Assembly (NCBI RefSeq): GCF_024979315.1
Contig: NZ_JANLCK010000006.1
Span: 62,001 to 126,000, forward strand
Origin: Herbiconiux oxytropis
Lineage (GTDB): Bacteria; Actinomycetota; Actinomycetes; Actinomycetales; Microbacteriaceae
Reading direction: 5' to 3'
DNA length: 64,000 nt
Shown here: positions 1-25,451 of the stretch, piece by piece
Numbering within the stretch: the stretch's first letter is position 1
How the letters are laid out: each line of letters starts with the position of its first letter
Translations under genes and position numbers: made by a program
Notes under the pieces: generated by a model
What the model was told of the DNA's origin: nothing
The model's input: only the letters and a program-made list of their open reading frames with translations
The model's database searches: none

Positions 1-995
1 CCGAGCTCGGCGGCTACGAGTTCTCGCCCACCCAGGTCATCAAGGCGGTCGAGCGGATCGCGGCCGCCGACGCCTCGACCGCGTGGGTCACGATGGCCCT
101 CCAGATGGAGACCGGGAGCACCGCGGCCTACCTCGACCCCGCCGCCGCCCGGGAGCTCTACGCCCACGGCTTGCCGTTGCACGCCGGACAGGGCACCAAG
201 CCCGGCACCGCGGTGCCGGTCGAGGGCGGCTACCGCCTCTCGGGCTCGTGGTCGTTCGCCTCGGGAATGCACCAGGCCACCCGCCTCCAGACGGCGGCGC
301 TCGTGCGCGAGACGGGCGAGTCGCTCATGATCACGGTGCCCGCCGGATCCGCGACCCTCATCGACAACTGGGACGTGATGGGGCTGAAAGCGACCGGCAG
401 CATCGACTACGACCTCGACGACGTGTTCGTGCCCGCCGAGCACGCCTGGCCCGCCGCCACCATGGAGCCGCGCACGGGTGGTGCCCTCTACCGCATCGGC
501 ATCGTGAACCTCTCGGGGCTCGGCCACGCGGGCTGGGCGCTCGGTGTGGCGCGCCGCATGCTCGACGAGATGGCCGAGCTCGCCCGCCGCAAGACGGGAT
601 CGCGCGGCGCGACCGTCGACTCCGCCCACTTCTACGCCGATTACGCGAAGGCCGAGGCGAAGGCGCGCTCGGCCCGCGCCTGGCTCCTGGAGGTGTGGGC
701 AGACAACGAGGCCACGCTCGCCGCCGGGCTCCCGCTCTCGGCCGAGCAGGAGACGCTCATCCGGCTCGCCCTCAGCAACGCCACCTGGATGGCCCACGAG
801 GTCACGATGACCGTCTACACGTGGGCCGGCACGGCAGCGCTCCGCTCGGGCGACCTGCAGCGCTACTTCCGTGACATGCACGCCGGAACCCAGCACGTGA
901 CGAGCGGGCCGGGGGTGGTGCAGGGCTGCGGGCAGATGCTCGCGGGCCTCGCCCCCGGCAAGCGGTGGATGTTCCTCGACCTCGTACCCGCCTGA
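1..995 (+). CDS. Acyl-CoA-dehydrogenase-fold flavoprotein, 5' end outside window
   Basis: The reading frame is already open at base 3 and runs without a start of its own kind to the TGA at 993-995, so the N-terminus lies upstream of the window; the ATG at 93 is internal. The visible part has the middle beta domain and C-terminal helical domain of the acyl-CoA dehydrogenase superfamily, including a GLKATGSIDYDLDDVFVPAE-type strand and a C-terminal RDMHAGTQHV segment. This fold includes true dehydrogenases and two-component flavin hydroxylases (HsaA, IacA and indole-oxygenase types). Another member of the fold lies at 4683-5951. Given the surrounding importers and aromatic enzymes, a hydroxylase or an acyl-CoA oxidising step is plausible; which one cannot be told. 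No flavin reductase partner is visible in the window. Confidence 0.85.
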   Translation, partial: ELGGYEFSPTQVIKAVERIAAADASTAWVTMALQMETGSTAAYLDPAAARELYAHGLPLHAGQGTKPGTAVPVEGGYRLSGSWSFASGMHQATRLQTAALVRETGESLMITVPAGSATLIDNWDVMGLKATGSIDYDLDDVFVPAEHAWPAATMEPRTGGALYRIGIVNLSGLGHAGWALGVARRMLDEMAELARRKTGSRGATVDSAHFYADYAKAEAKARSARAWLLEVWADNEATLAAGLPLSAEQETLIRLALSNATWMAHEVTMTVYTWAGTAALRSGDLQRYFRDMHAGTQHVTSGPGVVQGCGQMLAGLAPGKRWMFLDLVPA

Positions 996-1096
996 CCCGT
1001 CCGTCCCGCCTGACCCGTCCATCCCGCCCACCCGTTCCGTTCCCCGCCCCTCCCCATCCCGATCCACTCGCAGCACGACGAAGCAAAGGACGCACC

Positions 1097-2134
1097 ATGA
1101 GAAACCGCAGACCGGCCGCCGTCGCCGCCGTCCTGGCCACCGCCACCGCCGTGGCCCTCGCCCTGACCGGCTGTGCCACGTCGTCGACCGCCACGCCCGA
1201 CTCCACGAGCGAAGGCTCGGCCGAGGGCGAGACCAAGACCGTCACGGTCGGCATCGACATCCCGTTCCACCCGCTCTACGCCTACCTCACCGCCAAGAGC
1301 GACGAGATCTTCGCCGATTCCGGCTACGACATCGACTTCGAGGTGCTCGACGCCACGACCCTCGTGCCGAGCTTCGGGCGCGGCGACATCGACATCGTCA
1401 CGACCGTGCCGTCGTTCCAGCCCCGGATCAAGGACCAGTACGGCATCGACACCCAGTTCTTCTACCCGATGGCCCGCTGGACCCCGGGCTCCGAGCTCTA
1501 CGTCGCGGGCGACTCCGACATCCAGTCGATCGAGGACCTCGCGGGCAAGAAGGTCGCCATCCCGCCGCTCGCCACCCGCTTCGGCGCCGAGGAGGCCGCG
1601 GTGCTCGCCACCACCGGCGAGACCATCCAGGACTACTTCGAACTCACCGAGACCGACGCCGCGGCCCAGGAGCTCACCCTCGGCCGGGCCGACGCCGCGT
1701 TCATCGAGGCCCCCGCCACGGCGCCGCTGATCGAGGCGGGTTTCCGCCCGGTCTACAACGTGCAGGAGGCCTTCGAGGAGGAGTTCGGCGACCCCGCGGT
1801 GCTGAGCGGCGGGTTCATCGCGAGCAACGAGTTCGCCGAGGCCAACCCCGAGGTGATCGACCTCATCGTGCAGGCCACCCAGGATGTCTGGACCCAGTTC
1901 CAGGAGGATCCCGAATCGGTGCTCACCGTGGCGAGCGACGAGACCGGCATCCCGGTCGAGCAGCTCGAGCTCGTCTCCCAGATCCTCAACCTCGCCGAGA
2001 TGCCCGACGACCAGAAGATCGTCTCCGAGACCGACGTGGCCACCTGGAGCGCGATCTTCCCGCTGCTCGTCGAGGCCGGATTCCTCACCGAGGAGCCCGA
2101 GGACCCGGCGTCGATGTTCATCGTCACGGAATGA
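1097..2134 (+). CDS. ABC transporter substrate-binding lipoprotein (SsuA/NMT1 type)
   Basis: Extracytoplasmic solute receptor of an importer for small organic anions. The ATG at 1097 is preferred over the upstream in-frame start at 965 because it gives a clean lipoprotein signal: basic MRNRR start, hydrophobic stretch, and lipobox LTGC with the modified Cys at residue 26. The mature part carries the NMT1/THI5-like pattern (GIDIPFHPLYAYLTAK near the N-terminus, GRGDIDIVTTVPSF, then a VAIPPLATRFGAEEA hinge region). Length 345 aa is usual for the family. It is followed with an ATGA overlap by the permease and then the ATPase, so the three form one importer. Relatives carry sulfonates, taurine, nitrate, pyrimidines or phthalate; here an aromatic or heterocyclic acid is inferred from the neighbours. 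Confidence 0.9.
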   Translation: MRNRRPAAVAAVLATATAVALALTGCATSSTATPDSTSEGSAEGETKTVTVGIDIPFHPLYAYLTAKSDEIFADSGYDIDFEVLDATTLVPSFGRGDIDIVTTVPSFQPRIKDQYGIDTQFFYPMARWTPGSELYVAGDSDIQSIEDLAGKKVAIPPLATRFGAEEAAVLATTGETIQDYFELTETDAAAQELTLGRADAAFIEAPATAPLIEAGFRPVYNVQEAFEEEFGDPAVLSGGFIASNEFAEANPEVIDLIVQATQDVWTQFQEDPESVLTVASDETGIPVEQLELVSQILNLAEMPDDQKIVSETDVATWSAIFPLLVEAGFLTEEPEDPASMFIVTE

Positions 2135-2987
2135 GCACGATGACCTCGACCATCGAGCCCGCCGCGGGGGCGGCCGCCGTGCCGGGCGCCCCCGCCGCCG
2201 CGGCCCGCCCCGCTGCCGCCGCCTCTGCTCGGCGCGGTGGCTGGAAGCGCCCCGCCCGCGTGATCCTGAGCGTCATCGTGATCTTCGCGGGCTGGGCGAT
2301 CGCCTCCACCCAGTTCCCGTCCTACATCCTGCCCTCGCCGCTGGACGTCTGGGACCAGTTCCTCAGCGCCGTCGGCCGGGGGGTCTGGGTCGAGGAGATC
2401 CTCGCCACCGTGCAGCACCTGCTCGCCGCCTTCGGGCTGGTGATCGTGATCGGCCTGCCGCTGGGCATCCTGATCGGCCGTTCGAAGATCGCCGAGGACC
2501 TCGCCCGGGTGCCGATGATCTTCCTGCAGACCGTGCCCACGATCGTGCTGATCGCCCTCGCCCTCGTGATCATGGGCGTGAGCGACACCGCGGTGATCGG
2601 GGTGACCGTTGCGGGCTCGATCAGCTACTTCCTCATCAACGTCATCCAGGGAACGCGCTCGATCGATCCCGACCTCACCGAGATGAGCCGGGCCTACCAG
2701 GCCTCCGAGGGCTCGATCATGCGCTCCGTCGTGCTGCCCTCGGTGGTTCCCTACCTCCTCGCGGGGGCCAGGATCACGCTCGGTGTGGCCTGGCAGATCA
2801 CGCTCTTCTCGGAGTACCTGATGGGCACCGCGGGCGTGGGCTTCCAGGTCAACACGTCCATCAAGCTCCTCGACACCGCGGCGGTGTTCATGTGGGGCCT
2901 GTCCATCGTCGCACTCACCCTGCTGGTGGAGTACGGCATCTTCCGGCCGGTGGAGCGACTGCTCACCCGCCACGTGAAAGGACGATC

Positions 2988-2991
<4 letters not shown>
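2131..2991 (+). CDS. ABC transporter permease (SsuC/TauC type)
   Basis: Membrane subunit of the importer, 286 aa. After an Ala/Pro-rich cytoplasmic leader of about 40 residues it shows a first TM segment (VILSVIVIFAGWAIAST) and several more. The EAA-type loop that contacts the ATPase is seen in the region EMSRAYQASEGSIMRSVVLPS. The start ATG at 2131 overlaps the stop of the binding protein (ATGA) and its own stop overlaps the start of the ATPase gene in the same way, showing tight translational coupling. This is the binding-protein-dependent transport family of SsuC/TauC/ThiX. Substrate not determined by sequence. Confidence 0.9.
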
Positions 2992-3742
<751 letters not shown>

Positions 3743-3746
<4 letters not shown>

Positions 3747-4249
3747 CGGAGAGCACCCCCGGCGAGGTCGTGATCGTCCGCGACACCGAGCGCGAGTCGC
3801 TGTGGTTCCTCGGCGACCTCGTCGAGATCATCGTCGACGGCTCCAAGACCGGCGGCCGCCTCACGGTGGCCATGCACCACGCCCGCCCGAGCTCGCAGCC
3901 GCCGCTGCACGAGCACGACGCCGAGGACGAGATCTTCTTCATCCTCGAGGGCGAGATCACCTACTGGGCGCAGGGCATCACCGCGACGCTCGGCGCGGGC
4001 GACTTCATCCTGCTGCCGAAGGACGTGCCGCACAGCTTCCAGGTCTCGCCCGACCGGGAGGCGCGCTGGCTCGTCATCCTCGCCCCCTCGGGTTTCGAGG
4101 ACTTCCTGCGCGAGGCCTCCGACCCGGCCGGGCATCGCGGGCTGCCGGAGGACTTCACGATGACCCCCGAGATCGAGTCGCGCCTCATGACCGCGGCCGA
4201 GACGGCGGGCATCACCATCCTCGGCCCTCCCGGCACCCGCCCGTCCTGA
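3743..4249 (+). CDS. Single-domain cupin protein
   Basis: 168 aa, start ATG 3743 overlapping the ATPase stop. Contains a classic cupin barrel: motif 1 PPLHEHDAEDEIFFILEGEI (His, His, Glu metal ligands) at about residues 52-71 and motif 2 GDFILLPKDVPHSFQV with the third His. The C-terminal 45 residues are helical and lie outside the barrel. It resembles quercetinase-like cupins found in catabolic and antibiotic operons, which are usually metal-dependent oxygenases or isomerases. It is too short and lacks the two-domain form of gentisate dioxygenase. Its position directly behind the importer and before a SnoaL-like protein suggests a step in the same catabolic route; the reaction is unknown. 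Confidence 0.85.
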
Positions 4250-4260
4250 CAGGAGTAACC

Positions 4261-4668
4261 ATGTCCAACCTCCCCCTCGTCGAGCGCTTCTGGGCGGCCA
4301 ACGCCACGGGCGACGTCGACACCCTGAAAGCGGTGCTCGCCCCGGATGTCGAGTGGACGGTCGTCGGCCGCACCGTGCCGATCGCGAAGACCTACCACGG
4401 TCAGGACGAGTTCTTCGGCGAGCTCATCGCCACCCTCATCGCCTCGTTCACGCCGGGCACCGTGCAGATGACGGTCACCGGCATGTTCGAGGACCTCGAG
4501 CGCTCCACCGTCGTCACGCAGGTGCACGAGCGGGCGGAGTCGATCACCGGCGCCACCTTCGACAACGACATCGTGACCGTCATGACCATCGCGGACGGCA
4601 GGATCGTGGCCTCCGCCGAGTACATGGACCTCCTCGAGGTCTCCCGCAGCATCCCCACCCCTGAATAA
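4261..4668 (+). CDS. SnoaL-like / NTF2-fold protein
   Basis: 135 aa with an AGGAGT ribosome binding site just upstream. The pattern is that of ketosteroid-isomerase-like cone folds: VERFWAANATGDVDTLKAVLAPDVEWTV at the start and the AERTVVT.../ITGATFDNDIVTVMTIADGRI strands at the end. Members act as isomerases, cyclases, small hydroxylase partners or dehydratases; in indole-acetate degradation clusters a SnoaL-like gene (iacI) is also found, but I cannot claim orthology. It lies between a cupin and a flavoprotein with short spacing, so it is part of the same operon. Confidence 0.8.
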   Translation: MSNLPLVERFWAANATGDVDTLKAVLAPDVEWTVVGRTVPIAKTYHGQDEFFGELIATLIASFTPGTVQMTVTGMFEDLERSTVVTQVHERAESITGATFDNDIVTVMTIADGRIVASAEYMDLLEVSRSIPTPE

Positions 4669-4682
4669 GAGGAGTCAGCATC

Positions 4683-5951
4683 ATGGAAAGCACCGCAACC
4701 CTCGAGGCCCCCGCAGCGCCCACGCCGGGATCGCCCACATCCGCAGCGCCCGCGCCCGCGCCCGCAGAGAGCGTCGCGACCACCGCGGAGATCGTGCGCC
4801 GCATCCACGAGATCGGCCCCACCCTCCGTGCCAACTGGGCCGCAGGGGAGGCCGGCCGCTGCCTGCCCGCCGAGTCGATCGCCGCGATCCAGTCGACCGG
4901 AGCCTTCGACATCGCCCGCCTCGCGCGCTACGGCGGCTACGAGGGCGGTGCGCTCATGCTCGCCGAGGTCGCCCGCACGCTCGCCTACTACTGCGCGGCA
5001 TCCGGGTGGGTCACCGTGATCTCGAACGGCTCGGTCATGCTCACCAACCGCTTCGAGGACTCCGTGGTGGAGGAGGTCTTCGGCTCGGGCGAGACCGTGA
5101 AGATGGCCTCGATCTTCGTGAGCCCGCACGGCTTCGCGAAAGGCGAGGACGGCGGCTACCGGGTGGCGGGGGAGTGGCCGTACTCCTCGAACGTCAACGA
5201 CTCCGACTGGGCCATCGGCATCCTCCCCGTGCAGCGAGAAGGTGCCCCAGAGGGCGAGACCGAGATCGGCTTCGCCCTCATGAAGCGCGGCGAGTACACC
5301 GTGAAGGACACCTGGCACACCGTCGGCATGCGCGCCACCGGCAGCAACACGATCGTGGCCGAGGACGTCTGGATCCCCGCCGACCGCGTCTGCTTCTACG
5401 AACGACTGATGGGCGAGGCGTTCGAGACGGATGCCGAGGCGCCGCTCGGCCGCCGGCTCACCCCGATGGCCACCATGGCCACCACCATCTCGGCGCCGAT
5501 CGTGGGGGCCGCCCAGGCCGCCCTCGACATCGTGGCCGCGAACGCGAAGAAGAGGGGTGTGGCGAACACGACCTACGCGAAGCAGAACGAGTCGGGCGCG
5601 TTCGTGAAGGATCTCGGCGAGGCCGCCATGAAGATCGACACCTCCATCCTGCACCTCACCCGCGCGGCGGAGCTCATCGACCGCACCGCGCAGGGCACGG
5701 TGCCGCTCACCTCCGAGCAGCGCGCGAAGATCCGCGGCGACGCCGGGCACTCGGGCCGCAGCACGGTCGAGGCGATGAACGAGCTGATGTGGCTGGCCGG
5801 TTCGTCGGCGTTCGCCGCGTCGAGCCCGCTCGAGAAGCTGTGGCGCGACGTCAACACCGGCGCGCGGCACGGTGCCGTGGCCGCCCCGATGAGCTACGAG
5901 GTGTTCGCCGACGGACTCGTGGGCGCCGAGTACATCGTTCCCGTGCTCTAG
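4683..5951 (+). CDS. Acyl-CoA-dehydrogenase-fold flavin-dependent monooxygenase-like protein
   Basis: 422 aa, RBS AAGAGGAG upstream. Begins with an Ala/Pro/Thr-rich leader of about 35 residues, then helices with a LARYGGYEGG loop, a central beta domain (WPYSSNVNDSDWAIG and the TVGMRATGSNTIVAEDVWIP strand) and a C-terminal helical bundle ending RDVNTGARHGAVAAPMSYEV. The C-terminal pattern and the lack of the dehydrogenase catalytic Glu context point to the group D hydroxylases (HsaA/HpaB-like, also IacA and indole oxygenase) that use reduced flavin from a partner reductase. No reductase gene is visible near it. It is likely to hydroxylate or epoxidise the ring substrate imported by the neighbouring ABC system; that is inference. 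Confidence 0.85.
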   Translation: MESTATLEAPAAPTPGSPTSAAPAPAPAESVATTAEIVRRIHEIGPTLRANWAAGEAGRCLPAESIAAIQSTGAFDIARLARYGGYEGGALMLAEVARTLAYYCAASGWVTVISNGSVMLTNRFEDSVVEEVFGSGETVKMASIFVSPHGFAKGEDGGYRVAGEWPYSSNVNDSDWAIGILPVQREGAPEGETEIGFALMKRGEYTVKDTWHTVGMRATGSNTIVAEDVWIPADRVCFYERLMGEAFETDAEAPLGRRLTPMATMATTISAPIVGAAQAALDIVAANAKKRGVANTTYAKQNESGAFVKDLGEAAMKIDTSILHLTRAAELIDRTAQGTVPLTSEQRAKIRGDAGHSGRSTVEAMNELMWLAGSSAFAASSPLEKLWRDVNTGARHGAVAAPMSYEVFADGLVGAEYIVPVL

Positions 5952-5952
5952 C

Positions 5953-7236
5953 GTGAACCGCATCGTCGCGTCGCTCGGGCTGCGCTATGCCGAGCTTGCG
6001 GGCGGCGAGCGGTTCGCCGCTCCCGTGCGTGCCCGTGGCCAGCTGGGGGTGCGGCGCCTCGTCGACGTGCCCGTCTTCCCGCAGCTGCCCAGCCGCCTCT
6101 CGGCCGCCATGGGCACGGAGCTCGAGCGCAACCCGCAGTCCGAAGACGCCTTCCACCTCAACGTGTGGGCGCCGGAGGGTGCCCGCGACCTCCCCGTGCT
6201 GGTCTACCTGCACGGTGGGGCGTGGGCGACGGGCGGCGGGTCGGCGGCCTGGTACGACGGCTCGGTGCTCGCGGCCCGCGGCATCGTGGTGGTCACCGTC
6301 AACTACCGGGTGGGCCCGCTCGCGCACCTGCAGCCGGACGACACCGAGGTGCTGCACAACCGCCCGGTGGAGGATCTGCTGCTCGCGCTGGACTGGGTGC
6401 AGGAGAACATCTCCTCCTACGGCGGCGATCCGCTCGAGGTGACGGTCGCCGGCCATTCCGCGGGCGGCTGGTACGGGCACGCGCTGAGCGTGCATCCGGC
6501 CGCTCGGGGCCTTCTCCGGCGGGTGGCCCACCTCAGCATGGGCACCGAGCCCGGGCGCTCGCCGGAGCTCGCACGCGCGATCACGGCCCGGGTGCAGGAG
6601 CTCACGGGGGATGCGTCGCTCCAGCGGGTGCCCCTCGGCGAGCTGCTCGCGGCGGGTCGTGCGGCGCTTGCGTTCGACCGCCCGCTCGGTGAGCTCCCCC
6701 GCTCGTACCTGCCGGCGGAGGGCGAGTTCGCGGCGCCCGATCTGTTCGACCCGCAGGTCGCCGCGGCCACCTGCCACGCCGACGCCGTGTACATCCGCAC
6801 CACCGCCGACGAGACGGGGATCTTCGGCTTCGCCGACCCGGTCGATCGCGCCGTGACCGACGCGCAGGTCGACCGGCTCGCGGGGGAGTGGGGCGCCCCG
6901 CCGCCCGCCGGTGGCACGCCCTACGAGCGCCTCGTCTCCCTCACCACCTGGCGGCACTTCTCGGGGTTCGCCGTGGCGCTCGCCGCCGCCCACGCAGCCC
7001 TCGGCCGGCCCGTGCAGCTCGAGCGCTTCGAGGAGCGCAGCCCGCTCGAGGGCCTCGGCGCCGCACACTGCTTCGATCTGCCGTTCCAGTTCGGCAACCG
7101 GCCGCTCTGGGGTGATGCACCGATGCTCCGCGATGTGCATCCCGTGCGCTTCGCCGAGGTCTCCGCCCACTGGGTGACGAACCTGGCCGACTTCGTCTCG
7201 GGACATCCGGTGCCGAAAAAATCCATTCCGCACTAG
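5953..7236 (+). CDS. Type B carboxylesterase / para-nitrobenzyl esterase family protein
   Basis: 427 aa, GTG start two bases after the preceding stop. Shows the alpha/beta hydrolase landmarks of the family: oxyanion loop HGGAW (residues 87-91), LNVWAP strand before it, and nucleophile elbow GHSAGG with Ser169. A candidate catalytic His lies in the LGAAHCFDLPFQFG segment near the C-terminus. It is somewhat shorter than typical members (about 480-500 aa). No signal peptide, so cytoplasmic. It probably cleaves an ester or lactone formed in the pathway; last gene of the first transcription unit, as a new promoter follows at once. Confidence 0.88.
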   Translation: MNRIVASLGLRYAELAGGERFAAPVRARGQLGVRRLVDVPVFPQLPSRLSAAMGTELERNPQSEDAFHLNVWAPEGARDLPVLVYLHGGAWATGGGSAAWYDGSVLAARGIVVVTVNYRVGPLAHLQPDDTEVLHNRPVEDLLLALDWVQENISSYGGDPLEVTVAGHSAGGWYGHALSVHPAARGLLRRVAHLSMGTEPGRSPELARAITARVQELTGDASLQRVPLGELLAAGRAALAFDRPLGELPRSYLPAEGEFAAPDLFDPQVAAATCHADAVYIRTTADETGIFGFADPVDRAVTDAQVDRLAGEWGAPPPAGGTPYERLVSLTTWRHFSGFAVALAAAHAALGRPVQLERFEERSPLEGLGAAHCFDLPFQFGNRPLWGDAPMLRDVHPVRFAEVSAHWVTNLADFVSGHPVPKKSIPH

Positions 7237-7262: not shown

Positions 7263-7339
7263 GGCCGAAACGAACGATGCCTACTGTCGATGGAGTACCC
7301 GCTCCATCACGCCGGAATCGAACGAAAGGTGATTCGCTG

Positions 7340-8659
7340 ATGAATGACAGCCCGTACTGGAACCCGAAGACGGAGACGATGTCGAGGGACGACCTGCGCG
7401 CCCTCCAGTTCGTGAAGTTCAAGCGGGTGGTGGAATGGGCCGAAGCGCGCAGCGTGTTCTACCAGAAGTCGTTCCAGCGGGCCGGGTTCGACTCGTCTCA
7501 GCTGAACAGCTGGGACGACTACGACCGCGTGCCGTTCCTCACCCGTGAGGAGTGGATGCGCAGCCAGAACGACTTCCCGCCCTACGGCGAGCTGCCGGTG
7601 GCCGGTCACGAGAACGCGATCCGCTTCCACACCACGAGCGGCACCTCGGGCAAGACCCCGCTGCGGGCGCTCGACAGCCGCAAGGACTGGTCGTGGTCGG
7701 CCGAGATGTGGTCGTACGCCCTCTGGGGCATGGGCGTGCGCCCGCACGACATCGGCTACGTGGCCTTCGGCTACGGCACCTTCATCGGCTTCTGGGGCCT
7801 GCACAACGGCCTCGAGAAGCTCGGCGCCACCACGATCCCGGGCGGTGCCCAGCCCACCCCCACCCGCGTGAAGCAGATCATCGACTACGACGTCACGGTC
7901 GTGGCCTCCACCCCCACCTACGCCCTGCGGCTCGCGCAGGAGGCGGAGAGCCTCGGCATCGACCTGAAGAACTCCAAGGTGAGCCGGATCGTGCTCTCGG
8001 GCGAGCCCATCCCGCCGAAGACCAAGGAGCTCATCGAGGAGCTGTGGGGCGCCAAGTCGTTCGACACCGCCGGAATGACCGAGATCTCGACCATCTTCAT
8101 GTTCGAGCCGGAGGACCAGCCGGGCGGCACCCACATCATCGAGGACCAGTTCGTGGAACGCGTGATCGATCCCGAGACCGGCATCGAGCTGCCCTACGGC
8201 GAGCGGGGTGAGCGCATCACGACGTCGTTCGGCCGCAGCATGATCCCCCTCATCAAGTACCGCACCTCCGACCTCGTGGTGAAGGTGCCGCACACCACCA
8301 CCTCGAACGGGCGCACCTGGGACCTCTACCAGGGCGGCATCCTCGGCCGGGTCGACGACATGAAGCTCGTGCGCGGCACGAACGTCTACCCCCGCGCCGT
8401 CGAGGCCATCGTGCGGGCGTTCCCCGTGATCGACGAGTTCCAGGTGAAGATCACCCGGGAGGGCATCCGCGACGAGATCACGCTGCTCGCCGAGCCCGTG
8501 CCCTCGGTGACCGATGCGGAGTGGACCGAGCTCATCGCGAAGCTCGGCACCGAGCTGGCCGACGGCCACGAGGGCCTGCGTTTCATCATCGAGCGCGCGC
8601 CCGAGAACACCCTCCCCCGCTTCGAGCTGAAGGCCAAGCGCCTCCAGGACCTGCGCTGA
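7340..8659 (+). CDS. Aryl/acyl-CoA ligase, phenylacetate-CoA ligase (PaaK-like) family
   Basis: 439 aa. ATG 7340 is preferred over the in-frame start at 7277 because of the GAAAGGTGA ribosome binding site and the usual N-terminus of the family. Adenylation motifs: phosphate loop TTSGTSGKTP (residues 98-107), a DTAGMTEI acceptor-like motif, and the hinge region GILGRVDDMKLVRGTNVYPRAVEA typical of PaaK-type ligases. It activates an aromatic carboxylic acid to its CoA thioester at the cost of ATP. It opens the second transcription unit behind the shared operator. In combination with the CoA-level hydroxylase at 19161 it suggests a hybrid aerobic pathway in which the ring is attacked as CoA thioester. 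Substrate unknown. Confidence 0.9.
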   Translation: MNDSPYWNPKTETMSRDDLRALQFVKFKRVVEWAEARSVFYQKSFQRAGFDSSQLNSWDDYDRVPFLTREEWMRSQNDFPPYGELPVAGHENAIRFHTTSGTSGKTPLRALDSRKDWSWSAEMWSYALWGMGVRPHDIGYVAFGYGTFIGFWGLHNGLEKLGATTIPGGAQPTPTRVKQIIDYDVTVVASTPTYALRLAQEAESLGIDLKNSKVSRIVLSGEPIPPKTKELIEELWGAKSFDTAGMTEISTIFMFEPEDQPGGTHIIEDQFVERVIDPETGIELPYGERGERITTSFGRSMIPLIKYRTSDLVVKVPHTTTSNGRTWDLYQGGILGRVDDMKLVRGTNVYPRAVEAIVRAFPVIDEFQVKITREGIRDEITLLAEPVPSVTDAEWTELIAKLGTELADGHEGLRFIIERAPENTLPRFELKAKRLQDLR

Positions 8660-8923: not shown

Positions 8924-8925
8924 GG

Positions 8926-9831: not shown

Positions 9832-9884
9832 ACCAGCCGCCCCCGGCATCCACCCAGGCATCCACCCCGAAGGAACGAGACACC

Positions 9885-13382: not shown

Positions 13383-13385
13383 GAC

Positions 13386-17120: not shown

Positions 17121-18001
17121 CCTCCTTCCTCCAGGCACTCATCGACGCCACCTCCGCGGGCGCCGTCTACGCGCTCGCGGCGCTCGGCATCGGCCTCGTC
17201 TTCGGCGTGCTGCGGCTCGCGAACTTCGCCTACGGCGAGATCATCACCGCCTCGGCCTACACGCTCATCATCGTCTGGCCGATGAACCCGGTGCTCGCCG
17301 TGCTGGGCGCCGCGGTGGTGGGCGTGGCCGTCGCGCTCGCCATGAACTACGCCGTGTTCTCCTGGCTGCGCTCGCAGTCGGCGGCCACGCTGCTCATCGC
17401 GAGCTTCGGCCTCAGCATCCTGCTGCAGCGCATCTACGAGGGCATCTTCGGCGCCAACGTGCTCTCGGCCTCCGTGGCGAGCGGGCTCTCGACCTCCGTG
17501 AACCTCGGCGGCGTGCGGCTCAACCTGCTCTCGGTCGTCACGATCGTGCTCGCCGCCATGCTCCTCGTGGGGGTGCAGCTCTTCCTCACCCGCACGAGCA
17601 TCGGGCTGCAGGTGCAGGCCGCGTCGGCCGACTTCCGGATCGCGCGCCTGCTCGGTGTGCGCTCGGGTCTCGTGATCGCCGTCACCTTCGCCATCAGCGG
17701 CTTCATCGCCGCGGCCGTCGCCTTCGTGCTCACCGTGCAGTCGGGCACCGTGGGGCCCTCGTTCGGCGTGCAGCCCACGCTCTTCGGCCTCATCGGCGCC
17801 GTGATCGGCGGTCTTCGCAACCTCCGCGGCGCGGTCGTCGGCGGCTTCGTGGTGGGCGTGGCGCTCTCCCTCCTCACCAGCTGGCTGCCGCCGGAGATCA
17901 ATCCGTTCCGCACGGCCTTCGTCTACCTCCTCGTCATCGCCGTGCTCGTGCTGCGGCCGAACGGCCTGTTCTCCGCAGGCGCCGGAAAGGTGCGCACATG
18001 A
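17117..18001 (+). CDS. ABC transporter permease (LivH type)
   Basis: 294 aa, ATG 17117 in an ATGA overlap with the LivF-type gene. Starts directly with a hydrophobic segment (LIDATSAGAVYALAALGIGLVFGVLRLANFAYG) characteristic of LivH, then further TM helices and the cytoplasmic loop region FRIARLLGVRSGLVIAVTFAISG. The ORF opening extends to 16760 but that part is a shadow of LivF. Pairs with the LivM-type permease. Confidence 0.92.
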   Translation: MTSFLQALIDATSAGAVYALAALGIGLVFGVLRLANFAYGEIITASAYTLIIVWPMNPVLAVLGAAVVGVAVALAMNYAVFSWLRSQSAATLLIASFGLSILLQRIYEGIFGANVLSASVASGLSTSVNLGGVRLNLLSVVTIVLAAMLLVGVQLFLTRTSIGLQVQAASADFRIARLLGVRSGLVIAVTFAISGFIAAAVAFVLTVQSGTVGPSFGVQPTLFGLIGAVIGGLRNLRGAVVGGFVVGVALSLLTSWLPPEINPFRTAFVYLLVIAVLVLRPNGLFSAGAGKVRT

Positions 18002-19077
18002 TGCGTCGCGACCGCAAGGCCCAGGGCCTCGTGCCCGTTCCCGAGTGGGTGGGCGACGCCTGGACGATCGCCGCGCCGCTCGGCCTGCTCTACCTCGTCA
18101 CCGCCCTCGCGAGCGGCGTCTCCTCCTCGGCCAGGGTCGACCTCGGCTACATGCTGGTCAACCTCGTGATCGTGGTGGGCCTGTCGATCTTCGTGAGCAA
18201 CAGCGGCGTGCTGTCGTTCGGGCACCTCGCCTTCGTGGCGATCGGTGCGTGGACGATGTCGCTCCTCACCATCCCCGTGAACATGAAGGACTCGATCATG
18301 CCGGCGCTCCTGCCGGTGCTCCGCGACGCGTCGCTCCCGCCGCTCGTGGCGGTGCTCGTGGCCGCGGTCGTCGGCGGCGTCGTGGCGCTCCTCGCCGGGG
18401 CCGCCCTCATGCGGCTGCACGGGCTCGAGGCCGGCATCGCGACCTTCGCGCTGCTCATGCTCGTGGTGCAGGTGCTCACCTACTCCACGGCCCTCGGCCC
18501 GCGCTCGGGCCAATCCATGGTCGGCATCCCGCAGTCCCTCGACCTGCAGAGCATGCTCGTGATCGCACTCCTCATGGTGGTGGTGGCCTGGTTCTACAGC
18601 CGCTCCCGCAGTGCTCGACTGCTCCGCGCATCCCGCGACGACATCACCGCGGCCCCGGCCTCGGGCATCCACGTGACCAAGCACCGGATCATCGCGTTCG
18701 CGATCTCGGGAGCCGTCGCCGCGGTCGGCGGGGCGCTCTGGGCGCAGACGAACCGGGTGGTTCAGGCCTCGCAGTTCAACCTCGACTTCACCTTCACCAC
18801 GATCGCGATGCTCGTGATCGGCGGCATGTTCTCGCTCTGGGGAGCCGTGGTGGGCGTGATCGTGGTGTCGGTGCTCAACCACGTGCTGGGGCTCCTGGAA
18901 TCGGGTCTCCAGCTCGGCGGCGTGATCGTGTCGCTGCCCTCGGGCAGTCGGCTGATCATCGTGGGCCTCGTGCTGATCGTCGTGCTGATCCTCCGCCCGG
19001 GCGGTCTCACCGGCGGGCGCGAGGCGAGGTGGCCGCTCCGGCCGAAGCTCGCCCTGGGACTCTCCCGCAACTCCTAA
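17998..19077 (+). CDS. ABC transporter permease (LivM type)
   Basis: 359 aa, ATG 17998 in an ATGA overlap. About ten hydrophobic segments; LivM features are the NLVIVVGLSIFVSNSGVLSFGHLAFVAIGAW stretch and the loop RLLRASRDDITAAPASGIHVTKHRIIAFAISG. Last gene of the importer operon; a separate promoter with operator copy 3 follows it. Confidence 0.92.
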   Translation: MMRRDRKAQGLVPVPEWVGDAWTIAAPLGLLYLVTALASGVSSSARVDLGYMLVNLVIVVGLSIFVSNSGVLSFGHLAFVAIGAWTMSLLTIPVNMKDSIMPALLPVLRDASLPPLVAVLVAAVVGGVVALLAGAALMRLHGLEAGIATFALLMLVVQVLTYSTALGPRSGQSMVGIPQSLDLQSMLVIALLMVVVAWFYSRSRSARLLRASRDDITAAPASGIHVTKHRIIAFAISGAVAAVGGALWAQTNRVVQASQFNLDFTFTTIAMLVIGGMFSLWGAVVGVIVVSVLNHVLGLLESGLQLGGVIVSLPSGSRLIIVGLVLIVVLILRPGGLTGGREARWPLRPKLALGLSRNS

Positions 19078-19087
19078 TTCGTAAATC

Positions 19088-19113: not shown

Positions 19114-19160
19114 TAAAACTCGTATCCCACTCGACTCGACGGAACGGAAAGCACCCCACG

Positions 19161-21434
19161 ATGAAAATCGCATGCATCGGTGGAGGCCCCGGCGGCCTGT
19201 ACAGCGCCATCCTGCTCAAGCTCGCCGATCCCGCCCACGAGGTGACGGTCTACGAGCGCAACGCCGTCGACGAGACCTTCGGCTTCGGCGTCGTGTTCTC
19301 GGAGGAGACCCTCGACGGCCTCCGCGCGGCCGATCCGGTGAGCTTCGAGCGCATCGAGAAGCTCTGGCGCAAGTGGAGCGCCATGGACGTCGACTTCCTC
19401 GGCTACCAGGAGCGCAGCGACGGCCACGCCTTCGCGGCCCTCGCCCGCAAGGACCTGCTGATGGTGCTCGCCGACCGCGCCGCCGAGCTCGGCGTCGAGC
19501 TCGTGCACAACACGGATGCGCCGCTCGCCGAGGAGCTGCGGCTCACCCACGACCTCGTGATCGCCTCCGACGGCGTCAACAGCCGCACCCGCGAGACCTA
19601 CGCGGCTGAGTTCGGCGAGAAGGTCGAGGTGCGACCCTTCAAGTACGCCTGGTTCGGCACCGACCGGCCGATCGAGTGCTTCACGTTCGTGTTCGTCAAC
19701 ACGCCCTACGGCATGTTCTGGGCCCACATCTACCCGTTCGGTGAGAACGGATCGACCTTCCTCGTCGAGACCGATCCCGAGACCTGGCACCGCGCCGGGC
19801 TCGACGACTCGGTGCGGGTGCCGGGGCAGACCGACGAGAAGGCCCTGAAGTTCTGCGAGGAGATCTTCGCGGAGTACCTGCAGGGCCATGCGCTGCAGGG
19901 CAACAACTCCAACTGGCTGAACTTCCGCGACGTCACGAACGAGCACTGGCACACCGGCAACGTCGTGATCATCGGCGACGCAGCGCACACCGCCCACTTC
20001 TCCATCGGCTCCGGCACCAAGCAGGCGCTCGAAGACGCGGTGGCGCTCGTGGGCGCGGTCGCGGGGGAGCCCACCGTCGAAGACGCGCTCCTGCGCTACG
20101 AGGAGATCCGCCGGCCCGTCGCCGCGTCGCTCCGGCGCTCGGCCATGACGAGCCTCGAGTGGTTCGAGAGCATCCACCGCTACACCGTGCTGCCGCCCGC
20201 GCAGTTCGTGTTCCAGCTGCTCACCCGCAGTCAGCGCATCACCTACGACAACCTGCGCGTGCGCGATCCGCTCTACATGGCCCGCGTCGACGACTGGTTC
20301 GCCGAGGATCAGGCCGCCCGCGGCACCGGCGCACCCTCGGGCACGCCGCCCATGTTCTTCCCCTACAAGCTGCGCGACCTCGAGCTGAAGAACCGCGTGG
20401 TGGTCTCGCCCACGGCGCAGTACTCGGCCGTCGACGGCGTGCCCACCGACTGGCACCTCGTGCATCTCGGCTCCCGCGCCGTGGGTGGCGCCGGGCTCGT
20501 CTTCACCGAGATGACCTGCGTGTCGCCCGAGGGCCGCATCACCCCCGGCTGCCCCGGCATCTACGACGACGAGCAGGAGCAGGCGTGGGCGCGGGTCGTC
20601 GACTTCGTGCACTCCAACAGCTCGGCCGCCATCGGGCTGCAGATCGGCCACTCGGGCCGGAAGGGCAGCACCAAGCTCATGTGGGAGGGTATGGACGAGG
20701 CGCTCGACGAGGGCAACTGGCCCATCGTCGCCCCGTCGCCCATCCCGTACCTGGCCGACGGACAGGTGCCGCACGAGCTCACCGAGGCCGAGATCGCAGG
20801 GATCGTGGAGGAGCACGTGCAGGCCGCTCTCCGCGGGGCGAGGGCCGGCTTCGACATCCTCGAGCTGCACTTCGCGCACGGCTACCTCGTGTCGAGCTTC
20901 CTCTCTCCGCTGTCGAACAAGCGCACCGACGGCTACGGCGGCGACGCCGCGGGCCGCAGCCGGTTCGCGATCGAGGTGTTCGACGCCGTGCGCGCCGTGT
21001 GGCCGGAGTCCAAGCCCATCAGCGTGCGCATCAGCGCCACCGACTGGGTCGACGGCGGATTCTCGGGCGACGACGCGGTGGAGCTCTCGCGCGTGCTCAA
21101 GGAGCACGGCTGCGACATCATCGACGTCTCGACCGGGCAGACGAGCACCGAGGCGAAGCCCAACTACGGCCGGCTCTACCAGACGCCGTTCGCCGACCGG
21201 ATCCGCCTCGAGGCCGGCATCCCGACCATGACGGTGGGGGCGGTGTCGTCGATCGACGACGTCAACACCATCCTCGTGGCCGGCCGTGCCGACCTCTGCC
21301 TGCTGTCGAGGCCGCACCTCGTCGACCCGTACTGGACGCTCAACGCCGCGCTCGACCTCGGCTACCGCGACAAGACCGTGCCCAAGCAGTACAAGTCGGG
21401 GCTGCGCGCACGCCGGCGGGCGCAGACGCCGTGA
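19161..21434 (+). CDS. Bifunctional FAD monooxygenase / old yellow enzyme: salicylyl-CoA 5-hydroxylase or 2-aminobenzoyl-CoA monooxygenase/reductase family
   Basis: 757 aa with two enzymes in one chain. Residues 1 to about 390 are a class A FAD monooxygenase: dinucleotide fold [15 protein letters not shown] at the start, the [14 protein letters not shown] segment, and the FAD site [20 protein letters not shown]. Residues from about 395 form an OYE-type FMN barrel ([20 protein letters not shown], active-site [34 protein letters not shown]). This architecture is known for SdgC (salicylyl-CoA hydroxylase) and for 2-aminobenzoyl-CoA monooxygenase/reductase, which hydroxylates and then reduces the ring. 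It is the key enzyme of the block, acting on the CoA thioester made by the ligase at 7340. Followed by a thioesterase with a 4-base overlap. Confidence 0.9.
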
Positions 21435-21874
21435 GCGCGGCAGGCGCCGGTCCGGGCCCGTCGGTGGGCCCGTCGGTGGGCCCGTTCTCGGAGTCGCCCT
21501 TCGATCAGCACTACGGTCTCGAGATCGTGTCGCTGGGGGAGGGCGTGGCCGAGGCGCGGCTCGAGACCGGGCCGCAGCACGCCCAGCCCACGGGCGTCGT
21601 GCACGGCGGGGTCTACTGCGCCATCGCCGAGGCGATCGCCTCCGAGGGCACGAACCACGCCGTGCGGCCGTCGGGGCGGGTGGGCATGGGGCTGTCGAAC
21701 AGCACGAACTTCCTGCGCTCGGCGCCCGTGCCCGGAGTGCTCGTGGCGCGCGCCGAGGCGCTGCACCGGGGCCGCAGCACGTGGGTCTGGGACGTCACGA
21801 TCGGCGACGAGGCTGGCGCCGTGCGCTACGCCGTGACGCGCATGGTGATCGCCGTGCGTGATCTCCCGGCCTAG
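21431..21874 (+). CDS. PaaI-type hotdog thioesterase
   Basis: 147 aa, GTG 21431 overlapping the stop of the hydroxylase (GTGA). Hotdog fold with the motif [17 protein letters not shown], where the Glu after the HGG helix start matches the 4-hydroxybenzoyl-CoA thioesterase class II/PaaI catalytic acid. The N-terminus carries a GPSV repeat encoded by a 12-base tandem. Coupled to the CoA-level hydroxylase, it likely releases the hydroxylated acid or rescues CoA from dead-end thioesters. Confidence 0.9.
21454..21484 (+). repeat. 12-base tandem repeat, about 2.6 copies
   Basis: Unit GGGCCCGTCGGT at 21454-21465 and 21466-21477, followed by a partial copy to 21484. It encodes [10 protein letters not shown] in the thioesterase leader, before the hotdog domain, so copy-number change would leave the frame intact. 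Confidence 0.85.
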
Positions 21875-21967: not shown

Positions 21968-21987
21968 CTGAACCGATCCGGGGCCGA

Positions 21988-23689: not shown

Positions 23690-24115
23690 ATGTCAGCAGA
23701 GATCGTCCCCGTCGTCACCCGCCGCGGTGAGGAGCACACCGAGACCGGCCAGTCCGGTGGAGCCGTCCGCGTCTCCGGAGTGAGCATCCAGCACACCCCC
23801 GCCACGAAGATCTGGTTCGGCCAGGTCAGCAACGAGCCGGGCTACCGGTCGTTCCCCCACCACCACGGCGAGGCCGAGACCGGCGGCTACGTGCTGCGCG
23901 GCTCCGCCCGCATCTACTTCGGCGAGGGCTTCTCGGAGTGGCTCGACATGAGCGAGGGCGACTGGGTCTTCGTGCCGCCGTTCATGCCGCACGTCGAGGC
24001 GAACATGTCGACCACCGAGGAGCTCGTGTGGCTGACCACCCGCACGCCCGAGAACATCGTGGTGAACCTCGACGACGTCGACGACTCGACGCTCGAGGGC
24101 TACCGGCGGGCATGA
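23690..24115 (+). CDS. Single-domain cupin protein
   Basis: 141 aa, preceded by GGAGGTAG. Cupin motif 1 is seen in FPHHHGEAETGGYVLRGSARIYFG (His-His, Glu) and motif 2 in EGDWVFVPPFMPHVEAN. It shares the operon with the TesB-type thioesterase (ATGA overlap) and the Rid protein. Too short for gentisate dioxygenase. Could be a small metal-dependent oxygenase or isomerase or a sensor-like cupin; not resolved. Confidence 0.85.
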   Translation: MSAEIVPVVTRRGEEHTETGQSGGAVRVSGVSIQHTPATKIWFGQVSNEPGYRSFPHHHGEAETGGYVLRGSARIYFGEGFSEWLDMSEGDWVFVPPFMPHVEANMSTTEELVWLTTRTPENIVVNLDDVDDSTLEGYRRA

Positions 24116-25026
24116 GCTCCGCACAGTCGCCGTCGGCAGCACCCTCGCTCGAGCCCACGTCGGCGCCGTTCCTCGCAGCGGTCGATCTGACGGATGCCGG
24201 TGGCGACGTGTTCACCGCGCGCACCCAGTACGTGCCGTGGCCCAAGGCCTACGGCGGGGACATGGTGGTGCAGGCGCTCGCCGCCGCCATCCGCACCACC
24301 GACTCCGACCGGCGGGTCAACTCGTTCCACGGTCACTTCCTGCGGCCCGTCGACGTCTCGAGCGAGGTCTCGTACGCCGTCGATCGTGTGCGGGACGGCC
24401 GCGGGTACTCCACCCGCACCGTCACCGGGCAGCAGAACGGCAAGTCGGCGTTCATCGCGACCGTGACCTTCCAGGTGCCGGAGGACGGGCCCGACCTGCA
24501 GATCGAGATGCCCACGTCGCTGCCCGCGCCTTCTTCGTTGCCGTCGTCGGCCGAGGCCGTCGCCGGGGTCGAGGGGCCGGCCGCGGCCTATTGGGCCTCC
24601 GGTCGGAGCTTCGACATGAGGCACGTGCCCTCGCCCGTCTACTTCGACGTCGACGGAGCCGCGGTGCCGCACCAGGCCGTGTGGGTGAGGGCGTTCGACG
24701 CCCTGCCCGACGACCTCGACGTGCACCGCACCGCGCTCGCCTACGTGTGCGACTACACGATCCTCGAGAGCGCCCTGCGCGCCACCTCGACCCCGTGGGC
24801 CGCCGCCGGGCTCGCGACCGCGAGCCTCGACCACGCCATGTGGTTCCACCGCGACGGCCGTGCCGACGAGTGGGTGCTCTACGCCCAGCAGCTGCAGTCG
24901 CTGCAGAGTTCGCGCGCTCTCGTGCACGGCTCCTTCTTCTCCATTGACGGGCGGCTGCTCGCCTCCGTCGCCCAGGAGGGCATGATCCGCCTTCCCTCCC
25001 CGACACCACCAGGAGCCTCGTCATGA
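24112..25026 (+). CDS. TesB-type acyl-CoA thioesterase (double hotdog)
   Basis: 304 aa from ATG 24112, overlapping the cupin stop. Two hotdog domains: the first with YGGDMVVQALAAAIRTT and VNSFHGHFLRPVDVSSEVSYAV, the second with AYVCDYTILESALRAT (the Asp is the usual TesB active-site residue) and ATASLDHAMWFHRDGRADEWVLY. It hydrolyses acyl-CoA thioesters; in this setting it is the second thioesterase of the aromatic block, together with the PaaI-type one at 21431. Confidence 0.92.
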   Translation: MSSAQSPSAAPSLEPTSAPFLAAVDLTDAGGDVFTARTQYVPWPKAYGGDMVVQALAAAIRTTDSDRRVNSFHGHFLRPVDVSSEVSYAVDRVRDGRGYSTRTVTGQQNGKSAFIATVTFQVPEDGPDLQIEMPTSLPAPSSLPSSAEAVAGVEGPAAAYWASGRSFDMRHVPSPVYFDVDGAAVPHQAVWVRAFDALPDDLDVHRTALAYVCDYTILESALRATSTPWAAAGLATASLDHAMWFHRDGRADEWVLYAQQLQSLQSSRALVHGSFFSIDGRLLASVAQEGMIRLPSPTPPGASS

Positions 25027-25451
25027 CCACGCCTGTGCGCGCCAAAGAAACCATCAACCCGCCGAGCCTGTCGAAGCCCTCGGGGTTCGCGCACGGCACG
25101 AAGGTGGGCGACACCGTCTACCTCGGCGGGCAGACCGCCATGGGGGCCGACGGCGCGATCGTGCCCGGCGGCATCGTGGAGCAGTTCCGGCAGGCGTTCT
25201 CGAACGTGCTCGCCACGCTCGAGCACGCCGGCGGGGTGCCATCGGATCTCGTCGACGTGACGATCTATCTGACCGACATCCCGGACTACCAGGCCCACGG
25301 GCGGGAGATCGGGCGCATCTGGCGGGAGCTCGCCGGGTCGGACTACCCGGCCATGGCGGGGATCGGGACGACCGGGCTGTGGCAGGCCGAGGCGCTCATC
25401 GAGATCAAGGGTGTTGCCGTGATCGGGTCTTCGGCGGCTGCTGCTTCTTAG
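25023..25451 (+). CDS. Rid family protein (YjgF/YER057c/UK114) without the archetypal Arg
   Basis: 142 aa, ATG 25023 in an ATGA overlap with the thioesterase. Rid fold pattern: VGDTVYLGGQTAMGADGAIVPGG, then VEQFRQAFSNVLATLEHAGG and DVTIYLTDIPDYQ. The catalytic Arg of RidA imine deaminases, usually in a PAR motif, is replaced by Met here (DYPAMAGIG). The protein thus belongs to one of the Rid1-7-like groups common in catabolic operons, whose reactions are mostly unknown. Last gene of the operon. Confidence 0.9.
   Translation: MTTPVRAKETINPPSLSKPSGFAHGTKVGDTVYLGGQTAMGADGAIVPGGIVEQFRQAFSNVLATLEHAGGVPSDLVDVTIYLTDIPDYQAHGREIGRIWRELAGSDYPAMAGIGTTGLWQAEALIEIKGVAVIGSSAAAAS

What the first reader, a model, noticed from the sequence alone, without database searches (positions are those of the whole stretch)
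1..25451. Candidate undescribed catabolic route for an aromatic or N-heterocyclic acid through CoA thioesters
The set PaaK-like ligase, FAD-hydroxylase/OYE fusion (salicylyl-CoA 5-hydroxylase / 2-aminobenzoyl-CoA monooxygenase-reductase family), two thioesterases, FAH hydrolase, Rid protein, two ACAD-fold flavoproteins and two importers is a coherent catabolic kit. The cyclase-fold hydrolase plus TPP decarboxylase pair would suit opening isatin to isatinate and decarboxylating it, giving an anthranilate-level compound that the ligase and fusion enzyme could take on. A salicylate/gentisate-type route is the main alternative, but no gentisate dioxygenase is seen. The exact combination is not one I know from a described pathway.
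Basis: partly seen in the sequence, partly recalled or inferred. Interest (0 to 1): 0.72.

Follow-up and report, generated by a model that had tools for sequence, protein, structure and literature searches.

The report
Likely indole and anthranilate breakdown genes
An actinobacterium appears to carry, on two separate stretches of its genome, the enzymes to break indole down through isatin and anthranilate, with a lower half that runs on coenzyme A and differs from the best-known version of that route.

Summary
The kit is real: ligase, FAD/OYE fusion, two thioesterases, FAH, Rid, two ACAD-fold flavoproteins and two ABC importers sit where stated. A core (fusion, cupin, TesB, FAH, Rid, a ligase) recurs in actinobacteria and shares three plasmids with anthranilate-making genes, among them pAL1 of Arthrobacter Rue61a, whose anthranilate-CoA ligase was assayed in print. 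The cyclase's nearest solved relatives are isatin hydrolases. It is tied to the TPP enzyme: all 22 cyclase-bearing genomes of 248 have it, and it adjoins in 66 of 80 scan loci; five others carry an indolepyruvate-oxidoreductase-type enzyme instead. In Paeniglutamicibacter one 17-kb locus joins an indole-monooxygenase operon to this pair and the core; the window's own genome has such an operon on another contig. Proposed route: indole, 3-hydroxyindolin-2-one, isatin, isatinate, anthranilate, anthraniloyl-CoA, dearomatised CoA ester, deamination, ring opening. Unproven: every substrate, the TPP product, the ring opening, the role of operon 1's two flavoproteins. Against it: the cyclase lacks two isatin-hydrolase motifs, and a gentisate-type operon elsewhere keeps a salicylate rival alive. 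A new variant of known pathways, not a new kind.

The parts
1..995 (+). ACAD-fold flavoprotein 1 (gene starts 204 bases before the window)
   Evidence: NCBIfam HsaA model 97 bits, cut-off 450; best solved relative Rv3094c 126 bits, then HsaA 101; role unassigned
1094..3746 (+). SBP, permease and ATPase of a sulfonate/taurine-type ABC importer
   Evidence: SBP scanned (SsuA family below cut-off); permease and ATPase named by eye
3746..4668 (+). small cupin and SnoaL-like protein
   Evidence: PF07883, PF12680; role unassigned
4683..5951 (+). ACAD-fold flavoprotein 2, nearest solved relative XiaF indole hydroxylase
   Evidence: phmmer 272.8 bits to XiaF, next HsaA 166.2
5953..7236 (+). carboxylesterase
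   Evidence: PF00135 159 bits; role unassigned
7277..8659 (+). PaaK-like acyl-CoA ligase, candidate anthranilate-CoA ligase
   Evidence: found in 4 of 248 order genomes at E<=1e-110, all four with the fusion and the core cupin; the assayed Rue61a-type ligase has no relative above 34% in the own genome (9 matches)
8720..8923 (+). 67-aa DUF6052-like protein paired with the ligase
   Evidence: PF19522 21.3 bits, cut-off 25; pair kept in G101, G135, G107 and in Streptomyces clusters
8926..9831 (+). FAH-family hydrolase
   Evidence: NF053535 and HpaG domains below cut-off; 59% and 53% to the FAH near PaaK in G135 and G107, 39% in G101
9846..10376 (+). VOC/glyoxalase-fold protein
   Evidence: PF00903; 62% relative in Leucobacter locus L092
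11754..13382 (-). TPP-dependent enzyme, candidate isatinate decarboxylase
   Evidence: PF02775/02776/00205; adjoins the cyclase across genomes
13386..14168 (-). isatin-hydrolase-like cyclase-fold hydrolase
   Evidence: phmmer 249, 242, 242 and 224 bits to isatin hydrolase chains, two of them constructs of one protein; metal motif kept; GLTS instead of GLQC/GLAS
14350..19077 (+). branched-chain-type ABC importer (LivK, G, F, H, M)
   Evidence: LivK, LivG, LivH scanned; LivK/G/F relatives of 60-67% near the fusion in Leucobacter L092
19161..21434 (+). FAD monooxygenase/OYE reductase fusion, candidate 2-aminobenzoyl-CoA monooxygenase/reductase
   Evidence: NF006101 above cut-off; contexts
21431..21874 (+). 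4HBT thioesterase
   Evidence: PF03061
21988..23580 (-). CrtO-like FAD oxidoreductase, candidate producer of isatin
   Evidence: NF045689 156 bits, cut-off 1000; within 10 kb of the cyclase in 11 of 80 scan loci and in an Azospirillum indole-type cluster, 42.5%
23690..24115 (+). small cupin of the core, candidate ring-cleavage or isomerase step
   Evidence: 69-83% identity to relatives, H57, H58, H59, E61, E63 and H101 invariant in 14 sequences
24115..25026 (+). TesB-type acyl-CoA thioesterase
   Evidence: PF02551; in the fusion locus of 15 of 18 other genomes
25023..25451 (+). Rid protein, candidate deaminase of the dearomatised CoA ester
   Evidence: TIGR00004 46.9 bits, cut-off 106; in the fusion locus of 17 of 18 other genomes

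Best explanation
The region is most of an actinobacterial indole (or indole-derivative) catabolic pathway. Upper arm (inferred): an indole-monooxygenase operon on contig C27 of the same genome gives 3-hydroxyindolin-2-one; the CrtO-like flavoenzyme oxidises it to isatin; the cyclase-fold hydrolase opens isatin to isatinate (2-aminophenylglyoxylate); the adjoining TPP enzyme decarboxylates this 2-oxo acid to 2-aminobenzaldehyde or straight to anthranilate. Lower arm (inferred for this organism; ligase step and some CoA esters shown in Arthrobacter Rue61a by others): the PaaK-like ligase with its DUF6052-like partner makes anthraniloyl-CoA; the fusion hydroxylates and reduces the ring; Rid removes the amino group as ammonia; the cupin, FAH and thioesterases open the ring and free the product, in place of the beta-oxidation set of the Azoarcus route. 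The order of the last three steps is a guess. Shown here: homology, gene co-occurrence and context. Not shown: any activity.
For: Core on plasmids that carry anthranilate-making genes: quinaldine plasmid pAL1 (upper-pathway genes on it per PMC3534580), about 2.4 kb from aqdC1 in strain BG43, next to tryptophan 2,3-dioxygenase and a class V aminotransferase in NJ-530. Rue61a: ligase ARUE_113p00220 (by gene order the AMP-binding gene of the core) active on anthranilate; anthraniloyl-CoA found in anthranilate-grown cells, and C7H7NO3-CoA and C7H8O4-CoA only in those (PMC3534580, passages). Cyclase: isatin hydrolases are its best solved relatives. Cyclase and TPP: 22 of 22 cyclase genomes among 248; of 80 scan loci 70 have TPP, 66 within 400 bases, all same strand, and 5 more an IOR alpha/beta pair; two unrelated TPP enzyme families at one place point to a 2-oxo acid. 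One Deinococcus row: fusion, SDR, MarR, ECH, ACAD, ligase, cyclase, TPP, Rid. Indole link: IMO-like, SDR and AraC genes near CrtO-like and cyclase in 8 loci; L091 has the complete set; own IMO-type operon C27:146760-150468, with 5 of 6 IMO fingerprint residues at a one-residue shift (fingerprint from PMC13101512, passage). The iad preprint saw C8H7NO3 and C7H7NO, read there as likely intermediates before anthranilate (PMC12633357, section 5).
Against: The own cyclase has GLTS, not GLQC/GLAS, and W-x-H where isatin hydrolases have W-x-W or F-x-W. IifA of the iif route is reported to act on 3-hydroxyindolin-2-one without isatin (PMC6221969). Of 23 TPP-bearing order genomes 12 lack the full fusion, and in 69 of 80 scan loci, some cut by contig ends, no fusion is in reach, so the pair also serves elsewhere. 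L089 and L092 have core and cyclase but neither TPP nor IOR in reach. Four of six IOR loci keep a ligase. The IMO operon is on another contig. No aldehyde dehydrogenase is among the frames identified at 1-27 kb. Rue61a cells grown on 1H-4-oxoquinaldine showed no anthraniloyl-CoA, and a strain without pAL1 still grew on anthranilate, which its authors lay to paralogues. The gentisate-type operon on C28 fits a salicylate reading. Related genomes are not independent samples.
Confidence: 0.62

Rival explanations
1. Anthranilate-through-CoA is right, but the cyclase acts like IifA/IadI on 3-hydroxyindolin-2-one or a related lactam, and the TPP enzyme serves another 2-oxo acid; isatin is not an intermediate.
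For: GLQC-type relatives sit in an iif-type and an iad-type cluster; own motif differs from isatin hydrolases; IifA reported on 3-hydroxyindolin-2-one.
Against: Cyclase and a TPP-type enzyme go together in 75 of 80 scan loci; a CrtO-like oxidase that could make isatin recurs near them in 11 of 80.
Confidence: 0.2
2. Salicylate route: the ligase makes salicylyl-CoA, the fusion makes gentisyl-CoA, a thioesterase frees gentisate, and the C28 operon cleaves it.
For: NF006101 name and score; C28 carries a gentisate-dioxygenase-like bicupin, FAH, a mycothiol-dependent maleylpyruvate-isomerase-family protein and a MarR-type regulator; Caballeronia L168 has fusion, a 375-aa cupin and FAH in a row.
Against: The same product name is given to the fusion on pAL1, in an anthranilate setting; Rid and the anthranilate-making neighbours would be idle; the OYE half is not needed for a plain hydroxylation; Rue61a, which has this core, does not grow on salicylate or gentisate.
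Confidence: 0.12
3. Two pathways lie side by side (not exclusive of the best explanation): much of operon 1 (1-7236) degrades another aromatic ester or acid, and only the rest belongs to the isatin/anthranilate route.
For: ACAD1, ACAD2, esterase, SnoaL and the taurine-type importer have no counterpart of 40% or more in the 18 other core genomes (ACAD1 30% in G135, 33% in G107).
Against: They share operon 1 with PaaK, the 67-aa protein and FAH, which belong to the core in G101, G135 and G107; ACAD2 is nearest to an indole hydroxylase.
Confidence: 0.25

Closest known systems
Anthranilate-CoA pathway of Arthrobacter sp. Rue61a (pAL1)
   Same: fusion, cupin, TesB, FAH and Rid in one block
   Different: 551-aa AMP ligase there, PaaK-like protein plus DUF6052-like partner here; PaaX-type regulators there; genes split over several blocks here; no cyclase or TPP gene of this type in the 30 kb of pAL1 looked at
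Azoarcus evansii 2-aminobenzoyl-CoA pathway (known to me here through PMC4539516, passages)
   Same: monooxygenase/reductase acting on an aryl-CoA
   Different: beta-oxidation-type genes, as beside the fusion in Phyllobacterium and Deinococcus, were not seen here; cupin, FAH and TesB stand in their place
iif/ind indole cluster (regulator, cyclase-type protein, SDR, indole monooxygenase, flavin reductase)
   Same: AraC, SDR, IMO-like, flavin reductase on C27 and a cyclase-fold protein in the window
   Different: split over two contigs; cyclase of another motif type; TPP enzyme added. IifA itself was not compared
Isatin hydrolases (5nmp, 5nnb, 4j0n)
   Same: fold family, length, metal-site residues
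   Different: GLTS for GLQC/GLAS, W-x-H for the aromatic pair
iad auxin pathway of Variovorax (PMC12633357, PMC9613470)
   Same: a cyclase-family enzyme on the way to anthranilate; related cyclase in a Sulfitobacter iad-type cluster
   Different: no Rieske oxygenase or thiolase among the frames identified at 1-27 kb

Membership tests
Isatin hydrolase | cyclase fold, PF04199 | tested here: met
   138 bits; best solved relatives are isatin hydrolases
Isatin hydrolase | Mn ligands H-x3-H-x-D and catalytic His | tested here: met
   HTGEHIGTHIDAPVHW kept; pattern found in 104 of 108 loci; residue roles from PMC6117287 passages
Isatin hydrolase | GLQC or GLAS signature | tested here: not met
   GLTS; among 108 loci 4 are GLQC, the other 104 G[LIV]T or close variants, 7 of them read by eye
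Isatin hydrolase | WxW/FxW aromatic pocket motif | tested here: not met
   own YWKH, i.e. WxH; WxW in 8 of 16 aligned rows and 72 of 108 loci
Isatin hydrolase | hydrolysis of isatin | not testable with these tools
   needs enzyme assay
2-aminobenzoyl-CoA monooxygenase/reductase | FAD monooxygenase fused to OYE | tested here: met
   PF01494 + PF00724, 757 aa, NF006101 above cut-off
2-aminobenzoyl-CoA monooxygenase/reductase | activity on anthraniloyl-CoA | not testable with these tools
   context only
Azoarcus-type aerobic anthranilate pathway | beta-oxidation genes beside the fusion | tested here: not met
   no ECH or 3-hydroxyacyl-CoA dehydrogenase among the frames identified at 1-27 kb; the ACAD-fold proteins are HsaA/XiaF-like
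PaaK phenylacetate-CoA ligase | TIGR02155 over cut-off | tested here: not met
   224.5 against 646.3 bits
iif indole pathway | IMO, flavin reductase, SDR and cyclase-fold protein | tested here: met
   by homology: IMO-type operon on C27, cyclase in window
iif indole pathway | one gene cluster | tested here: not met
   two contigs, C27 and C29
Salicylyl-CoA/gentisate pathway | gentisate 1,2-dioxygenase | tested here: inconclusive
   C28 protein 252 bits, cut-off 442; the control genome C. glutamicum also rings below the cut-off
DUF6052 | PF19522 over cut-off | tested here: not met
   21.3 against 25 bits; 31% and 29% identity to two annotated DUF6052 proteins

The most novel reading that the evidence does not exclude
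The TPP enzymes bound to these GLT-type cyclases are the unassigned isatinate decarboxylases (with indolepyruvate-oxidoreductase-type enzymes making anthraniloyl-CoA directly in some genera), and the cupin/FAH/TesB/Rid set is a further, so far unassigned way to open the dearomatised 2-aminobenzoyl-CoA ring in Actinomycetota.
Probability: 0.42. Interest if true: 0.66.

Novelty: new variant of a known kind. Interest (0 to 1): 0.5.

Why it matters
If right, it names a gene for the step from isatinate towards anthranilate; in the parts of the iad papers that I read these compounds are detected but that step has no assigned enzyme. It also gives a gene list for the lower anthranilate-CoA pathway in actinobacteria; one pathway-curation effort left out tryptophan degradation via anthraniloyl-CoA monooxygenase/reductase for lack of knowledge (PMC9007349, passage). 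Indole is a widespread microbial signal, and alkylquinolone signals are broken down towards anthranilate (recalled; aqdC1 context), so the module may also bear on signal-degrading strains.

Tried and rejected
Salicylate/gentisate as main reading: kept as a rival only, since the family name NF006101 does not separate substrates and the neighbours make anthranilate. Core cupin as gentisate dioxygenase: it is a single 141-aa domain; the solved-structure search gave weak hits only, best a cupin-domain protein at 3.6e-06, oxalate decarboxylases from 8.9e-06, 3-hydroxyanthranilate dioxygenase from 0.005. Its AlphaFold model failed (mean pLDDT 35.7) and was not searched. IOR as a clean replacement of the ligase: only 2 of 6 IOR loci lack a ligase in the stretch held, so not claimed. 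SDR upstream of the window (L009:12441-13169) as part of the route: relatives of 33-36% only, dropped. IifA itself was not compared: no sequence was at hand by name.


Full report
WHAT IS THERE. The frames and families of the finding were confirmed. The window is contig C29, 62001-126000, of a 4.13-Mb genome. Four blocks matter: operon 1 (+), from 204 bases before the window to 10376; TPP and cyclase (-) 11754-14168; importer, fusion and 4HBT (+) 14350-21874; CrtO-like (-) 21988-23580 back to back with cupin, TesB, Rid (+) 23690-25451.

CORE MODULE. I searched the fusion in 248 genomes of the same order: 19 have it full length, window included (25 pass the threshold, of which 6 match only the OYE half and were left out). 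In the fetched stretches (up to 20 kb; two for G101) of the 18 others: cupin 15 of 18, TesB 15, FAH 15, Rid 17; one miss, G016, lies on a 4-kb contig. All 16 genomes with the cupin have the fusion. The PaaK-like ligase at E<=1e-110 occurs in 4 of 248 genomes, all four with fusion and cupin, and with the 67-aa protein beside it. Others have an AMP ligase instead, seen by eye in L042 and L045, by annotation, by tblastn in L055; I did not tabulate this for all 18.

ANTHRANILATE. On named plasmids the core stands on pAL1, the quinaldine plasmid of Arthrobacter Rue61a (the upper-pathway genes were not in the 30 kb that I fetched), about 2.4 kb from aqdC1 in Rhodococcus BG43, and next to tryptophan 2,3-dioxygenase and a class V aminotransferase in NJ-530. 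For Rue61a the paper (PMC3534580, passages only) reports anthranilate-CoA ligase activity of ARUE_113p00220 and of a chromosomal paralogue, anthraniloyl-CoA in anthranilate-grown cells, and, only there, CoA esters of C7H7NO3 and C7H8O4 acids, read as presumably hydroxyanthraniloyl-CoA and perhaps cyclohexanedione-carboxyl-CoA. [quoted passage not shown] that link is my inference, and so is the match of ARUE_113p00220 to the core's AMP-binding gene, made by gene order. Told against: no anthraniloyl-CoA in 1H-4-oxoquinaldine-grown cells; growth on anthranilate without the plasmid. Rue61a did not grow on 5-hydroxyanthranilate (cometabolic conversion only), gentisate or salicylate.

CYCLASE AND TPP ENZYME. 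The cyclase's best solved relatives are isatin hydrolases, 249, 242, 242 and 224 bits. The metal motif is kept. Two signature motifs named in PMC6117287 (passages) are not: GLQC/GLAS is GLTS, and the aromatic pair is W-x-H. So I say it works like an isatin hydrolase and do not file it as one. In the order, 22 genomes have the cyclase at E<=1e-40 and all 22 are among the 23 with the TPP enzyme at E<=1e-90. Of 19 fusion genomes 10 have the cyclase (Fisher P 2e-7) and 11 the TPP enzyme (P 2e-8); genomes are related, so these P values are too small. TPP lies in 70 of 80 (66 within 400 bases, all same strand; 69 at the cut). In 5 of the other 10 the partner is an indolepyruvate-oxidoreductase-like alpha/beta pair; L089, L092, L134 (contig end), L154 and L158 have neither in reach. 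The fusion lies in 11 of 80 loci, i.e. within 10 kb; by chance I would expect far less than one (own estimate: about 8% of genomes times 0.5% of a genome). Deinococcus psychrotolerans has fusion, SDR, MarR, ECH, ACAD, ligase, cyclase, TPP and Rid in one row. Tsukamurella has cyclase, an indolepyruvate-oxidoreductase-type pair, a nitrilase-related gene and the core on one plasmid, with an AMP ligase.

INDOLE. In L080, L081, L091, L092, L096, L099, L152 and L163 an AraC regulator, SDR and StyA/IMO-like protein stand near the CrtO-like gene and the cyclase; 7 of these 8 have the TPP gene too (not L092), and 3 the fusion (L091, L092, L096). Six of the 8 are from the 80-locus scan, two from the order search. 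The IMO-like proteins of L080 and L092 match StyA below its cut-off, that of L080 also PF17885. L091, Paeniglutamicibacter antarcticus, 3.1-20.6 kb, holds AraC, SDR, two IMO-like, reductase, CrtO-like, cyclase, TPP, fusion, ligase, TesB, cupin, FAH and Rid. The window's genome has AraC, SDR, an IMO-like protein (61% to that of L092, 64-68% to others) and a flavin reductase at C27:146760-150468. At a one-residue shift the IMO-like protein shows S, Q, M, V, I of the IMO fingerprint given in PMC13101512 (abstract and passages); the sixth residue does not match at that shift. An Azospirillum plasmid carries AraC, SDR, IMO, reductase, transporter, FAD oxidoreductase and cyclase in a row, no TPP in reach. 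These are the gene kinds of the iif route in print (PMC6221969 passages) and of a Providencia cluster with a PF04199 protein (PMC9871250 passages).

CYCLASE TYPES. Over 108 cyclase loci (a few are one genome twice, e.g. L057 and L111), 4 have GLQC (Azospirillum, Sulfitobacter, Caballeronia, Agrobacterium), one of them with a TPP gene in reach. The other 104 (7 of them outside my pattern and read by eye) have G[LIV]T or close variants: 93 with TPP, 6 with IOR, 5 with neither. The set was chosen by likeness to the window's protein, so GLQC types are under-sampled.

RIVALS AND GAPS. A gentisate-type operon on C28 (dioxygenase-like 252 bits, FAH, mycothiol-dependent maleylpyruvate-isomerase-family protein, MarR-type regulator) keeps the salicylate reading open. 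ACAD2 is nearest to XiaF, for which indole hydroxylation was shown (PMC5481743, passages), and may be a second indole-type oxygenase; ACAD1, esterase, SnoaL, cupin1 and VOC are unassigned. PaaK plus DUF6052 pairs also sit in Streptomyces clusters with anthranilate-synthase-type or sgcD genes, which hints at aminobenzoate-type substrates.

PRINT. Nine searches of the held library listed no paper whose title or shown abstract ties a TPP enzyme to isatinate or assigns the cupin, FAH, TesB, Rid set; in the papers named here I saw passages, and sections 5 and 11 of PMC12633357 in full. Subscription journals, the 2007 pAL1 paper among them (recalled, not seen), are not covered. The names 2-aminobenzaldehyde and isatinate for the C7H7NO and C8H7NO3 are mine; PMC9613470 reports isatin and isatinic acid in Variovorax (passages), and PMC12633357 later argues for a different, epoxide-first start of that pathway.

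Noticed in passing
G000:C28, L166:8029-11207: Gentisate-dioxygenase-like bicupin, FAH, mycothiol-dependent maleylpyruvate-isomerase-family protein and a MarR-type regulator in a row elsewhere in the genome.
   Followed up: partly
L062:12052-13522, L063:11995-13483: PaaK-like ligase plus DUF6052 pairs in Streptomyces antibiotic-type clusters (C-1027 among them) that also hold anthranilate-synthase-type genes; the small protein may be a general partner of these ligases.
   Followed up: partly
L168:1-7780: Caballeronia plasmid: fusion, 375-aa cupin, FAH, carbon-nitrogen hydrolase, racemase, MarR and GLQC-type cyclase, perhaps a gentisate-type variant of the same route.
   Followed up: no
L069, L067: Cyclase and TPP gene near thiolase, organic-hydroperoxide-resistance protein, zinc-type dehydrogenase and Asp/Glu racemase in both Agrobacterium pusense and Rhodococcus R138: another pathway may share the pair.
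   Followed up: no
window 56370-57326: A second, distant PF04199 cyclase-fold protein (49 bits) after an MFS transporter, in a second catabolic-looking region with SDRs, small cupins and MFS transporters (about 39-59 kb).
   Followed up: no
window 36032-37372: Beta-helix protein with a short match to an inulin-fructotransferase repeat (PF18835, 29 residues), after what look by eye like sugar ABC permeases and a LacI-type regulator.
   Followed up: no
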